A DNA stretch of 34,709 bases from Lachnospiraceae bacterium (GTDB lineage: Bacteria; Bacillota; Clostridia; Lachnospirales; Lachnospiraceae), in NCBI GenBank assembly GCA_017449765.1, contig JAFTFE010000089.1, positions 1-34,709 on the forward strand. The letters run 5' to 3'. The translations under genes and the position numbers were made by a program. Below the pieces are notes generated by a model, which worked only from the letters and a program-made list of their open reading frames with translations, did no database searches and was not told where the DNA came from. Positions 5,096 through 18,777 of the stretch are shown here, piece after piece; within the stretch, counting starts at the first letter, position 1, and every line of letters begins with the position of its first letter.

Positions 5096-5443
5096 CTATT
5101 CTTCTTTTTCATTTTTTAATATATTTTTTAATTGTTCTTTCATTTGAGGAAAATCAATAATAGCTGAATTATATACATCCTCCATCCTAAGCGTTTGATA
5201 TCTATGTGCGGTAATATCTCTCATACCGGCTGCATCTTTCCAGTTTATCTCCTTGTATTTTATTCTTGTATCCTCAGTTACATTTTTTATTAATTCACCT
5301 ATATTAATTATTGTCATACTGACTGCTCTTTTAAGAACTTCATCTTTCAAAAAATCTTCCATAGATATATCATTAAGAATTTGCTCAGCAATATCTATTT
5401 CATCTATAACTTTTTTCAACACAATTAAATCCCTATGCCGCAT
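5096..5443 (-). CDS. hepT: HepT-like (DUF86) toxin ribonuclease
   Basis: This 115-residue HEPN-domain protein has the R-x4-H-x-Y signature 'RDITAHRY' (R75, H80, Y82). In HepT toxins, R and H form the RNase site, and the tyrosine is the residue modified by the partner MntA. The protein would cleave RNA when unmodified and is neutralised by AMPylation. The gene overlaps the upstream mntA by 11 nt with only a weak ribosome site, so translation is probably coupled. Length matches the family. A terminator-like hairpin follows. The motif residues are intact, which argues that the module is functional. Confidence 0.9.
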   Translation of the reverse strand: MRHRDLIVLKKVIDEIDIAEQILNDISMEDFLKDEVLKRAVSMTIINIGELIKNVTEDTRIKYKEINWKDAAGMRDITAHRYQTLRMEDVYNSAIIDFPQMKEQLKNILKNEKEE

Positions 5444-5714
5444 AAAGTTCTACCACCTTTCCAACTTCTATCATATCTGTATCTCTTATTGGACCATGAA
5501 TAACATCAACTGAAAGGCCTGTCAAATCTTCAAGTTTATTTTTTAAGTTGGACAAAAACATTATTGTCACAGTTCTGTTAAACTCAACTATTAAATCTAT
5601 ATCACTATCATCATTATTTGTACCTGCTGCTCTTGAACCAAAAAGCACTACGTTTTTGAAAGAGTACTCATCCGCAATATCCAAAATAATCATCTTAATT
5701 CTATCGTTAGTCAT
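5433..5714 (-). CDS. mntA: MntA-like nucleotidyltransferase antitoxin
   Basis: This 93-residue protein starts at ATG 5714, chosen because AGGAGG lies just upstream; a longer reading from 5753 has no such site. It is a minimal nucleotidyltransferase with the GSX10DXD motif: G26-S27, then ten residues to D38-I-D40. MntA proteins transfer AMP from ATP to the HepT active-site tyrosine and so neutralise the toxin. The order here is antitoxin first, with an 11-nt overlap into hepT. The IS110 element begins about 70 bp upstream of this start and may have altered the promoter, so basal expression of the pair could differ from other genomes. Confidence 0.9.
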   Translation of the reverse strand: MTNDRIKMIILDIADEYSFKNVVLFGSRAAGTNNDDSDIDLIVEFNRTVTIMFLSNLKNKLEDLTGLSVDVIHGPIRDTDMIEVGKVVELYAA

Positions 5715-5805
5715 TTTCAAACCTCCTCGTATAATATATTTTAGATACATCAAATGTACCTTGATAACTTAATAAATCTTTGTTCAATAGGCTTAGTAAA
5801 GCCCA

Positions 5806-5814
5806 TGATATAAT
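5806..5814 (+). promoter_or_regulatory. Extended -10 promoter for the IS110 bridge RNA
   Basis: TGATATAAT at 5806-5814 is a perfect extended -10 (TGnTATAAT). No good -35 lies 16-18 bp upstream within the element, which suits an extended -10 or a -35 supplied by the joined right end of a circular form. The expected start near 5821 is just before the first RNA hairpin. Confidence 0.5.
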
Positions 5815-5820
5815 TGTTCC

Positions 5821-6010
5821 ATAGTGTCAATCAGGTATCAGTTCTAACGCCTCCTGTTGATCCATAAATGGATGCTTCATAATAAGTCTGTTCCCCTGAC
5901 ACGGATGTTAGCTTCAAACCGGCTGGCTGTTTGCCTATGTTTATGGGCTGCCTCTTAGCAGTGGGGTTCGCATTAGTCCATCTTAGGCTGGATTCTTATA
6001 TGCGAGGGTG
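5821..6010 (+). ncRNA. Candidate IS110 bridge RNA
   Basis: The region upstream of the recombinase folds into three hairpins. Hairpin A has stem GTGTCA/TGACAC (5824-5829 with 5897-5902), a large internal loop and the cap ATCCAT/ATGGAT (5860-5873). Hairpin B has AACC/GGTT and GCTG/CAGT stems (5917-5968), an internal loop and the cap GCCTAT/ATGGGC. Hairpin C has stem CGCAT/ATGCG (5969-5973 with 6000-6004) with inner TCCA/TGGA. Hairpins with paired internal loops are the architecture of IS110 bridge RNAs, whose loops pair with target and donor DNA. The length of about 190 nt is close to the published IS621 RNA. Ends are inferred, and guide sequences cannot be assigned without the element boundaries. 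Confidence 0.6.
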
Positions 6011-6083
6011 TCGATGCTCCGTGATCATGGGTTTTACTAAGCCGATTGAACACTCAAATCCAACATAGAAAGAAGGTGATAAC

Positions 6084-7310
6084 ATGAACCCACTTTACGT
6101 CGGTATTGATGTTAGCAGCAAATCCAATGTCGTATACCTGATGCTTCCTGATGGCAGTAAGCACAGTAACTTTTCCGTTTCCAACTCTCACGATGGATCC
6201 GCTCAGTTGGTAAAACGTATCCTGTCAGCAATTGCATCTCATTCCCTTGACACAGTAATCATTGGTCTCGAAGCCACTTCTGTTTATGGCGACAACCTTG
6301 TGTATTTCTTAAGGGAAGATGCCACTCTGGTACCATATGACAAGAAGATCCATGTCCTCAATCCAAAGCAGGTAAAACATTTCAAGGAAGCGTATAATGA
6401 CCTGCCAAAGAATGATTATGTGGACTCCTATGTCATTGCTGACTGCCTGCGTTTCGGTAGAATCAACAAAGAGGTCTATCAAAGCGATTACCGTTATAAA
6501 GCCCTTCAGAACCTTACAAGGGCTCGTTTCTTCGCCGTCCAGAACCTCGTCAAAGAAAAACAGCGATTCATCAATGTCCTGTTCAAGAAGTATTCTACAA
6601 TGACGCAGGAGAAGGTATTTTCCAATACCTTCGGCACTACCGCCCTAGCTGTCTACGAAGAGTTTGATTCCGCAGAAGCTTTGGCTTCGATGGACTTACA
6701 GGAGCTTACGGACTTCATTATGGAAAAGGGGAAGAACCGCTTCCCTGATCCGGATGCCGTAGCCAAAGCCATCCAGAAAGCTGCCAGGAGTTCCTACCGT
6801 TTACCCAAGACGGTGAATGACTCCGTTAATCAAGTGCTTTCTATATCCATAACCTCAATAAAGGCATTGGATGCTCAAATCAAGGAGTTCGACAAGGCTA
6901 TAAAAGCCCAGATGGAACTCCTGCCAAACGTTTTGACCTCCATTCCAGGTATTGGTCCGGTATACTCCGCAGGTATTATCGCAGAGATTGGAGATATCAA
7001 TCGTTTTCCGTCTCAGGCGCAACTCGGTAAATATGCCGGTCTTGCTTGGACTCAGAATCAGTCCGGTGACTTTGAAGCTGAAAACACAAAGCTCATAAGA
7101 TCCGGAAATAGATTCCTAAAGTATTACCTGTGTGAAGGTGCCTTATCCCTCGTGAGATGCGACACGGAGTACAGCAACTTCTATCACTCCAAATATAAAG
7201 AAGTGAACAGGCATCAACACAAACGTGCACTCGCATTAACTGCCCGTAAATTTGTGCGGTTAGTCTTTCGACTGCTGAAAGATAATCGCCTATATCGAGC
7301 AGCGGAATAG
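6084..7310 (+). CDS. IS110 family transposase (DEDD recombinase)
   Basis: This 408-residue recombinase has an N-terminal RuvC-like DEDD domain with D9 ('GIDVSSKS'), E63 ('GLEATSVYG'), and D111 and D114 ('NDYVDSYVIAD'). A coiled-coil linker follows. The C-terminal transposase-20 domain starts at about residue 280 with 'LTSIPGIGPVYSAGI' and contains 'RSGNRFLKYYL', in which S340 is the expected catalytic serine. In this family the protein acts with a bridge RNA to recombine element ends with target DNA. AAGGTG lies just before the ATG at 6084. All key residues are present and the frame is intact, so the element looks active. It is transcribed away from mntA and towards the minus-strand histidine kinase gene. 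Confidence 0.96.
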   Translation: MNPLYVGIDVSSKSNVVYLMLPDGSKHSNFSVSNSHDGSAQLVKRILSAIASHSLDTVIIGLEATSVYGDNLVYFLREDATLVPYDKKIHVLNPKQVKHFKEAYNDLPKNDYVDSYVIADCLRFGRINKEVYQSDYRYKALQNLTRARFFAVQNLVKEKQRFINVLFKKYSTMTQEKVFSNTFGTTALAVYEEFDSAEALASMDLQELTDFIMEKGKNRFPDPDAVAKAIQKAARSSYRLPKTVNDSVNQVLSISITSIKALDAQIKEFDKAIKAQMELLPNVLTSIPGIGPVYSAGIIAEIGDINRFPSQAQLGKYAGLAWTQNQSGDFEAENTKLIRSGNRFLKYYLCEGALSLVRCDTEYSNFYHSKYKEVNRHQHKRALALTARKFVRLVFRLLKDNRLYRAAE

Positions 7311-7332
7311 ATATCTATTCCTGCTGATGAAT

Positions 7333-7364
7333 GCCCTGCTTCAAAAAAGCAGATTTTGCAGGGC
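7333..7364 (+). terminator. Hairpin after the IS110 transposase, with two mutually exclusive folds
   Basis: GCCCTGC (7333-7339) can pair with GCAGGGC (7358-7364). Its CTGCTT part (7336-7341) can instead pair with AAGCAG (7347-7352). The outer fold is the stronger and probably ends the transposase transcript. There is no long T-tract, so termination strength is uncertain. Confidence 0.5.
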
Positions 7365-7430
7365 TTATTAAGGTTACCCTTTTTCCAGTAAATGATACAA
7401 AAAAGACTTAAAAAACTTATAAATTTATAC

Positions 7431-7460
7431 TTGACATATCACCGCTGGACTTACTATTAT
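7431..7460 (+). promoter_or_regulatory. Outward-facing sigma-70-type promoter right of the IS element
   Basis: TTGACA (7431-7436), an 18-bp spacer and TATTAT (7455-7460) make a near-consensus promoter pointing to the right. No plus-strand gene follows; the next gene is the minus-strand histidine kinase, whose 3' end is at 7551. It would give an antisense RNA. Alternatively its TTGACA could serve as the right-end -35 of an IS110 circle junction. Confidence 0.45.
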
Positions 7461-7550
7461 ATTATAATAATATCATACCACATTTTAATCATTAAACAAT
7501 ATTTTTATTTATAAAACAATGATGCAAAAATTCCGGTAATGTAATTGATA

Positions 7551-18588: not shown

Positions 18589-18777
18589 GGTATATTCAAT
18601 TATATATGACTATCGCAGGCACGCTCTCGCTAAGATTCGCACGCAACGGTACTAAGCTCCTTAAGCCTACAAAATCATATTAACTCACTTTGTTCGTTAT
18701 ATGATTTTATAGTCTCAAGTCACTAACTACCGGCGGCTCATATTACCTGCTTATAGTCATATATAATCGAATATACC
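18589..18777. repeat. MITE-like nested palindrome (189 bp) between folBK and ppx
   Basis: The terminal arms 18589-18613 and 18753-18777 match over 25 nt with one mismatch: GGTATATTC, one variable base, then ATTATATATGACTAT. A GCAGG/CCTGC pair lies just inside. Further in, CGGTA/(T)ACCG-like segments, CTTAAG-like segments and AAAATCATAT/ATATGATTTT pair again, so the whole element folds into one long imperfect hairpin. It has no ORF of note. It fills nearly all of the gap between the two genes. No target-site duplication is obvious. Confidence 0.7.

What the first reader, a model, noticed from the sequence alone, without database searches (positions are those of the whole stretch)
5781..6083. 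IS110 bridge RNA candidate enclosed by a 29-nt inverted repeat
The 5' non-coding region holds three hairpins with internal loops, the layout of a bridge RNA, and is framed by 29-nt arms that match at all but two positions. Such strong flanking arms are not part of the usual bridge RNA description. The left arm ends in the RNA's -10 box, while the right arm lies between RNA and recombinase start. The arms could act as DNA (recombinase binding), as an RNA switch in longer transcripts where they would hide the recombinase leader, or as a remnant of an embedded element.
Basis: partly seen in the sequence, partly recalled or inferred. Interest (0 to 1): 0.7.

Follow-up and report, generated by a model that had tools for sequence, protein, structure and literature searches.

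The report
Bridge RNA closed by long stem
A jumping gene of gut bacteria makes a guide RNA that steers it into the ribosome-binding sites of other genes, and this guide RNA is enclosed by an unusually long, conserved double-stranded stem that could let the cell cut it out of the longer message for the enzyme.

Summary
The inverted repeat is real: 5781-5809 and 6024-6052 match at 27 of 29 positions. It frames the bridge RNA of an IS110-group element (about 5726-7451). The RNA is confirmed by its guides: they match each copy's own flanks better than all 20,000 reshufflings, n=34 left and n=21 right. 36 of 37 aligned copies keep both arms, three with a one-base indel. RNAalifold recovers them as a stem closing both guide loops; 14 of 26 pairs show two-sided changes. 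Copy L033 has unrelated arm sequences that still pair. In the 11 inner pairs, G·U outnumber A·C changes 27 to 2, which points to RNA of the + strand; the outer 15 pairs do not. A relative clade has shorter, different arms.

The left arm lies upstream of an internal extended -10 box, so only transcripts starting further out can form the stem, chiefly those from the TTGACA-17-TATAAT promoter made at the circle junction. Best guess: a maturation stem separating bridge RNA from recombinase mRNA. Leader hiding is not supported by folding. The guides aim at Shine-Dalgarno sequences (32 of 35 left ends). New variant of a known kind.

The parts
5726..7451 (+). IS110-group element, from left core CT (5726-5727) to right core CT (7450-7451)
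   Evidence: Left end recognised in 35 of 37 copies; right end seen by eye in 33 of 38 downstream rows; guides match the flanks outside these points
5730..5735 (+). TATAAT -10 half of the junction promoter, complete only when joined to the right end (TTGACA 7431-7436), 17-bp spacer
   Evidence: 24 of 24 copies with both ends recognised, of 37; the search patterns themselves contain hexamers and spacing
5757..5775 (+). boxA-like motif TACCTTGATAACTTAATAA
   Evidence: 20 of 37 copies hold a form of it; TACCTTGAAAACT stands before a 23S gene of Anaerocolumna. Function inferred
5781..5809 (+). left arm of the closing stem
5806..5814 (+). internal extended -10 promoter TGATATAAT; start of RNA about 5821 inferred
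   Evidence: 36 of 37 copies
5831..5899 (+). target-binding loop of the bridge RNA
   Evidence: consensus fold
5846..5855 (+). left target guide AACGCCTCCT (same strand as the left flank ...ACCTC-CT)
5878..5887 (+). right target guide CATAATAAGT (complementary to the right flank CTTACTATTATA)
5900..6023 (+). donor-binding loop of the bridge RNA; GGCTGGCT (5921-5928) resembles the right end, TTATATGCGAG (5996-6006) is complementary to the left end with a bulge
   Evidence: fold; donor matches read by eye, hardly testable by covariation because the ends are nearly invariant
6024..6052 (+). right arm of the closing stem
6072..6078 (+). ribosome-binding site of the recombinase (GAAGGTG)
   Evidence: sequence
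6084..7310 (+). DEDD recombinase, 408 aa
   Evidence: PF01548 E 2.9e-29 and PF02371 E 2.8e-24
7431..7449 (+). right end, holding TTGACA (7431-7436)
5433..5714 (-). nucleotidyltransferase (MntA-like) gene, ATG at 5714-5712, whose Shine-Dalgarno AGGAGG (5727-5722, minus strand) is the insertion target; followed by a HepT-like gene (5096-5443)
   Evidence: PF18765 and PF01934; sequence; site geometry

Best explanation
The region is the bridge RNA of an IS110-group insertion sequence whose RNA is closed by a 26-29 bp stem. SHOWN by comparison: the stem, the two guide loops, the targets, both promoter motifs. INFERRED: when the element is a circle, the joined ends form a strong promoter; its transcript includes the left arm, so both arms pair and close the bridge RNA, as the processing stems of ribosomal RNA precursors do. 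A double-strand nuclease such as RNase III then cuts the stem, freeing a protected bridge RNA and leaving the recombinase message, with its ribosome-binding site downstream of the stem, intact. In the integrated state the internal promoter, whose -10 box begins at the inner end of the left arm, yields bridge RNA without the stem. One element so makes two RNA forms according to its state.
For: Stem: 91-92% of cells paired; 13 of 26 pairs (14 after correcting one column) changed on both sides, 30 cells v 7.8 expected, 0 of 500 shuffles. L033: own pairing score 25.0 v at most 13.0 in 72 cross pairings. G·U v A·C events 27 v 2 in the 11 inner pairs. Predicted arm pairing 0.88 in long transcripts, mean of 35 copies. 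Position: the donor stem and the right arm are directly adjacent and the arm ends about 20 nt before the ribosome-binding site. Junction promoter in 24 of 24 copies with both ends recognised; internal extended -10 in 36 of 37. A boxA-like motif between the two in 20 of 37. Sister clade with different arms at the same place. Siddiquee et al. [quoted passage not shown]
Against: No RNA data; both transcription starts and any cut are inferred. The outer 15 pairs show no G·U bias (10 v 17), and 10 of the 27 inner G·U events fall on one column. Four pair positions fail in 9 to 20 of 37 copies (columns 157, 164, 165, 168). L010 has a decayed left arm, and L017, L024, L039 carry a one-base indel in an arm. 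For 5 of the 6 copies examined singly some cross pairing scored higher than the own pairing, as most arms are alike. The boxA-like motif is missing in 17 of 37 and not enriched in the own genome. Siddiquee et al. think the transposase a likely processor.
Confidence: 0.42

Rival explanations
1. The stem is a lasting structural part of the bridge RNA that the recombinase binds, a longer counterpart of the 5' stem-loop of IS621, with no cleavage.
For: Stem adjoins the donor stem and covaries; inner half under RNA-level constraint; IS621-type RNAs have a 5' stem-loop (passages of PMC11208160).
Against: The conserved internal -10 box (36 of 37) would make RNA lacking the left arm.
Confidence: 0.25
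2. The arms act as DNA: inverted sites bound by the recombinase or a host repressor around the internal promoter, controlling bridge RNA and recombinase expression.
For: The left arm reaches into the -10 box; the outer half (TCAATCGG / CCGATTGA) is strongly conserved without G·U bias.
Against: 27 v 2 G·U bias in the inner half; L033 replaced most of the sequence on both sides and kept pairing, unusual for a protein site.
Confidence: 0.12
3. RNA switch: in long transcripts the stem hides or exposes the recombinase leader, as 5'-UTR structure does in ISPpu9.
For: Precedent in ISPpu9 (abstract and passages); in single copies such as L007, L012, L014 the site is predicted less open in the long form.
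Against: The ribosome-binding site is outside the stem; predicted accessibility 0.354 long v 0.366 short, mean of 35 copies, with copies such as L022, L023, L035 going the other way.
Confidence: 0.07
4. Trans action: the free right arm of short bridge RNAs pairs with the left arm of the promoter DNA or of long transcripts and damps the internal promoter.
For: The right arm of the short RNA would lack its partner and is complementary to the promoter segment (sequence); G·U bias fits RNA:DNA pairing as well.
Against: Nothing direct; no such case seen in the listings.
Confidence: 0.05

Closest known systems
IS621 and other IS110-group elements with bridge RNA (Durrant et al. 2024, PMC11208160; passages and section 12 seen)
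   Same: DEDD recombinase, bridge RNA in the long left end, target and donor loops, core dinucleotide, promoter formed at the circle junction
   Different: 29-nt arms around the whole RNA, an internal extended -10 promoter about 80 bp inside the left end, guides aimed at Shine-Dalgarno sites
ISEc21 / seekRNA of IS110 and IS1111 (Siddiquee et al. 2024, PMC11187229; passages seen)
   Same: RNA co-transcribed with the transposase from the junction and in need of processing
   Different: No long enclosing stem is mentioned in the passages seen; the subterminal inverted repeats of IS1111 (usually 11-13 bp) lie at the element's ends, not around the RNA
ISPpu9 (Gomez-Garcia et al. 2021, PMC8450116; abstract, outline and passages seen)
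   Same: Long structured 5' untranslated region before tnp
   Different: There structure is thought to bury the ribosome-binding site and an antisense RNA to open it; here the site lies outside the stem
Processing stems of ribosomal RNA precursors (recalled)
   Same: Long stem enclosing a structured RNA, boxA-like motif upstream
   Different: Analogy only; nuclease cutting not shown here

Membership tests
IS110 family, IS110 group | DEDD_Tnp_IS110 plus Transposase_20 domains | tested here: met
   Pfam, both over cut-off
IS110 family, IS110 group | Left non-coding end longer than right, RNA in the left end | tested here: met
   About 358 nt left v about 141 nt right
IS110 family, IS110 group | Bridge RNA with target loop whose guides match the target | tested here: met
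   Left n=34, right n=21, 0 of 20,000 permutations each
IS110 family, IS110 group | Donor loop matching the element's own ends | tested here: inconclusive
   Matches seen by eye; ends nearly invariant, no covariation test made
IS110 family, IS110 group | Promoter formed at the circle junction | tested here: met
   TTGAC[AT]-17-TAT[AG][AG]T in 24 of 24 copies with both ends recognised, of 37; the patterns hold hexamers and spacing
IS110 family, IS110 group | RNA-guided recombination | not testable with these tools
   Needs experiment
IS1111 group | RNA in the right end and 7-17 bp subterminal inverted repeats (as in section 12 of PMC11208160) | tested here: not met
   RNA lies in the left end; the arms are not at the two ends: the left is 53 bp inside the left end, the right 31 bp before the gene
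RNase III processing stem | Conserved near-perfect duplex of about two turns or more | tested here: met
   26-29 pairs with a few weak positions, RNA-level bias in the inner half only; the length requirement is recalled
RNase III processing stem | Cleavage in the stem | not testable with these tools
   Needs RNA ends in an rnc mutant

The most novel reading that the evidence does not exclude
A whole IS110 lineage has built its RNA system on the pattern of a ribosomal RNA operon: circle-junction promoter, boxA-like antitermination motif, and a long processing stem that cuts guide RNA and recombinase message out of one transcript. Because the left arm is transcribed only from outside the internal promoter, closed RNA marks the circular state and open RNA the integrated state. 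Its guides carry an anti-Shine-Dalgarno-like CCTCC core, so the element seeks the ribosome-binding sites of almost any gene and leaves the site's GAGG in place.
Probability: 0.25. Interest if true: 0.8.

Novelty: new variant of a known kind. Interest (0 to 1): 0.6.

Why it matters
How IS110 guide RNAs are matured and separated from the recombinase message is left open in the passages I saw; this lineage offers a natural, testable answer with strong covariation. A lineage whose guides aim at Shine-Dalgarno sequences would be a general, host-independent targeting strategy and a source of new programmable recombinases whose guide RNA may come as a self-contained, stem-closed unit.

Tried and rejected
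Leader hiding by the stem: folded 35 copies as long and short transcripts, no difference in the mean. Embedded-element remnant: rejected, arms fixed in place in the aligned copies. Rfam: no match at gathering score among 4227 families in the window. Other copies in the own genome: only the window copy plus one remote IS110 protein (24%), so no within-genome copies to compare. Empty site: among 20 related genomes the MNT gene had one relative, at 36%; the ends rest on conservation and guides. boxA in the own genome: 19 matches v 26 for the reversed pattern at up to 3 mismatches, no enrichment; no 23S found in the assembly; two of three relative 23S leaders read as N. A first look for arms in the sister clade and a first alignment took minus-strand loci in the wrong orientation; redone. 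In one search one column of one pair was mis-set (166 for 165); corrected. In one search the ends of L046, L037 and L027 were mis-anchored and L041 was counted; corrected. Plasmids: 5 records, each covering only 4-8% of the element.

Rows dropped. Of 43 loci, 34 entered alignment A1 with the window, L046 and L047 (37 rows). Left out: L006 (contig begins inside the region), L021 (match begins at residue 21, upstream not alignable), L030, L031, L036, L043, L044, L045 (fragments without the gene's start) and L041 (broken match, although its arms pair at 26 of 26). L049, L051, L052, L054 were dropped as repeats of L010, L025, L042, L035, judged by their arms and coordinates. L048 and L050, main-clade copies on the minus strand, were missed by the anchor search and never added; whether they repeat named loci was not checked. 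Fragments L053, L055, L066, L072 were not used. In one search L010, L017, L024, L039 were left out. In one search, 11 sister copies were counted; L061, L064, L070 had no start found; L071 repeats L062's genome, and L073, L074 of that genome were not given to the call. Mean own arm score was 22.3 v 20.0 for cross pairings: a small gap, since most arms are alike; the power lies in L033 and the two-sided changes.

Full report
OBSERVATION. The window holds a 29-nt inverted repeat, 5781-5809 and 6024-6052, 214 nt apart. 27 of 29 positions are Watson-Crick; of the other two, one is A against G and one G·U. Its score, 24.0, compares with a maximum of 11.5 in 150 dinucleotide shuffles of 5700-6083. 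The finding is confirmed as described.

THE ELEMENT. The gene at 6084-7310 encodes a DEDD recombinase with both IS110 domains. 43 loci were found in genome contigs, 2 in viral contigs, and 24 of 397 family genomes, the own one included, had a match at E 1e-80 or better, many of them a sister clade at 41-44% identity. Upstream and downstream alignments give sharp ends: the left end begins CT-CGTATAAT, the right end stops at CCGCTGGA-CT. In the window the element runs from core CT 5726-5727 to core CT 7450-7451.

BRIDGE RNA. The left guide (5846-5855) carries the same-strand sequence of the left flank and the right guide (5878-5887) the complement of the right flank. Across copies, guides fit their own flank better than others' flanks: left 4.94 of 8 v 4.14 (sd 0.18), n=34; right 4.24 of 7 v 2.60 (sd 0.23), n=21; 0 of 20,000 permutations reached either. 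This follows the rule of Durrant et al. (PMC11208160, passages and section 12) and identifies the RNA without any database match (Rfam gave none).

TARGET. The left end lies directly against a Shine-Dalgarno sequence of a gene on the other strand: a start codon 7-18 nt from the core that opens a frame of 40 or more codons in 32 of 35 copies with a recognised left end, against 386 of 1700 random positions in the same flanks. The three exceptions are L013 (24 codons), L024 (3) and L025 (contig end). In the window the target is the MntA-like gene of an MNT/HepT pair (ATG at 5714-5712, minus strand); insertion keeps AGGAGG before its ATG, while a promoter-like TTAAAA-16-TATAAT pointing at it now lies beyond the right end, at 7488-7461 (such matches were no commoner than in shuffles, 6 v 5.6). 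Sister-clade copies sit at the same kind of site by eye. Searches for IS110 with Shine-Dalgarno (6 papers), with ribosome binding site (8 papers) and a wider one (12 of 25 listed) showed no paper that, by title and start of abstract, reports such targeting; the library lacks most subscription papers and preprints.

THE ARMS IN OTHER COPIES. RNAalifold on 37 copies, left to itself, predicts the arm stem and inside it the two guide-bearing stems, the donor stem directly adjacent to the right arm. For the arms, 91.7% of cells pair, 13 pairs and 30 cells are changed on both sides, v 4.4 and 7.8 in shuffles, 0 of 500; slid controls reach at most 5 pairs and 45% paired (14 of 26 pairs after correcting one column). 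For the whole structure 36 of 75 pairs and 174 cells, v 17.4 and 54.5. L033, whose protein is 63% identical, has arms unlike the others that still pair at 25 Watson-Crick and 2 G·U of 28; its score 25.0 exceeds all 72 cross pairings (maximum 13.0). Against: for the other five copies examined singly, the window's included, the best cross pairing scored higher than the own one, because most arms are alike; L010's left arm is decayed (its left end too was not recognised); L017, L024 and L039 have a one-base indel in an arm; four pair positions fail in 9 to 20 of 37 copies.

RNA OR DNA. On a tree of the RNA's interior, 33 copies, mismatches that would be G·U in the + strand RNA arose 27 times in the 11 inner pairs (10 of them on one column) and A·C 2 times; in the 15 outer pairs 10 and 17 times; together 37 v 19. 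If the left side is held by the promoter, single transitions on the right would give A·C at 7 of the 11 inner positions (my count), so the bias is not a side effect of the -10 box. The inner half therefore acts as RNA; for the outer half the level is open.

SISTER CLADE. In 11 copies at 41-44% protein identity, duplex energy of the corresponding segments is -20.4 v -12.6 (sd 3.1) in mononucleotide shuffles and -16.7 in cross pairings; two subgroups have different arm sequences, between-subgroup pairing -13.8, within -19.7 kcal/mol. Single copies range from -12.3 (L060, no better than shuffles) to -28.3, and part of the energy comes from extra pairs further downstream. Shorter arms at this place thus seem older than the family studied.

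TRANSCRIPTS. Joining right and left ends gives TTGAC[AT]-17-TAT[AG][AG]T in 24 of 24 copies with both ends recognised (the search patterns contain hexamers and spacing, which were first read from the alignments). A second, extended -10 box lies at the inner end of the left arm, TG[AG]TATAAT in 36 of 37; no good -35 stands before it (by eye; one search did not list it). So RNA from the internal promoter lacks the left arm, RNA from the circle junction has it. The integrated left end faces the start of a gene on the other strand, so + strand readthrough from outside should be rare (inference). Between the promoters 20 of 37 copies carry CTTGATAAC-like sequence; TACCTTGAAAACT occurs before a 23S gene of Anaerocolumna, in the genome of L016, and boxA elements lie upstream of 16S and 23S genes (PMC5725501, passages, for E. 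coli). That this is boxA is inference.

FUNCTION. Predicted accessibility of the recombinase ribosome-binding site is on average the same with and without the left arm (0.354 v 0.366, 35 copies; single copies differ either way), so leader hiding is unlikely. The stem closes the RNA, stands free of the ribosome-binding site and is long enough for RNase III (length requirement recalled). I take processing and protection of the bridge RNA from long junction transcripts as most likely, a lasting structural role as the main rival. Siddiquee et al. (PMC11187229, passages) state the need for processing and think the transposase likely does it. No paper listed (18 listed; 8; 8 of 12) appears by its listing to describe such a stem; of these I saw passages of Durrant et al. 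and of the TIGR-Tas paper (PMC12045711), and only the listing of the others, the IS621 structure paper PMC11208158 included.

VERDICT. A real, conserved, at least partly RNA-level structure in a new lineage of a known system. The mechanism is a hypothesis with clear tests.

Noticed in passing
5726-5727 and left flanks of 35 copies: The lineage inserts into Shine-Dalgarno sequences of host genes, keeping GAGG-like sequence before the start codon; 32 of 35 copies v 23% of random positions.
   Followed up: yes
7461-7488 minus strand; 5096-5714: Insertion parts an MntA/HepT-like pair from a promoter-like TTAAAA-16-TATAAT now beyond the right end of the element.
   Followed up: partly
5757-5775: boxA-like motif between the junction promoter and the left arm, matching the leader of a relative's 23S gene.
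   Followed up: partly
5887 and right ends of L023, L042: The two copies of 21 whose right target guide reads GCT instead of ACT also have G instead of A before the core CT of the right end (GAG-CT, GGG-CT): a possible pairing of exchanged strands.
   Followed up: no
18589-18777: Nested inverted repeats (25 nt at 96% around 34 nt at 76%) between two genes, the look of a small palindromic element.
   Followed up: no
L010:8-367: Copy with unrecognised left end and decayed left arm but intact right arm and recombinase match, as if the left arm is no longer under selection once the end is lost.
   Followed up: partly
L002: Own genome holds a second, remote IS110-type recombinase (24% identity).
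   Followed up: no
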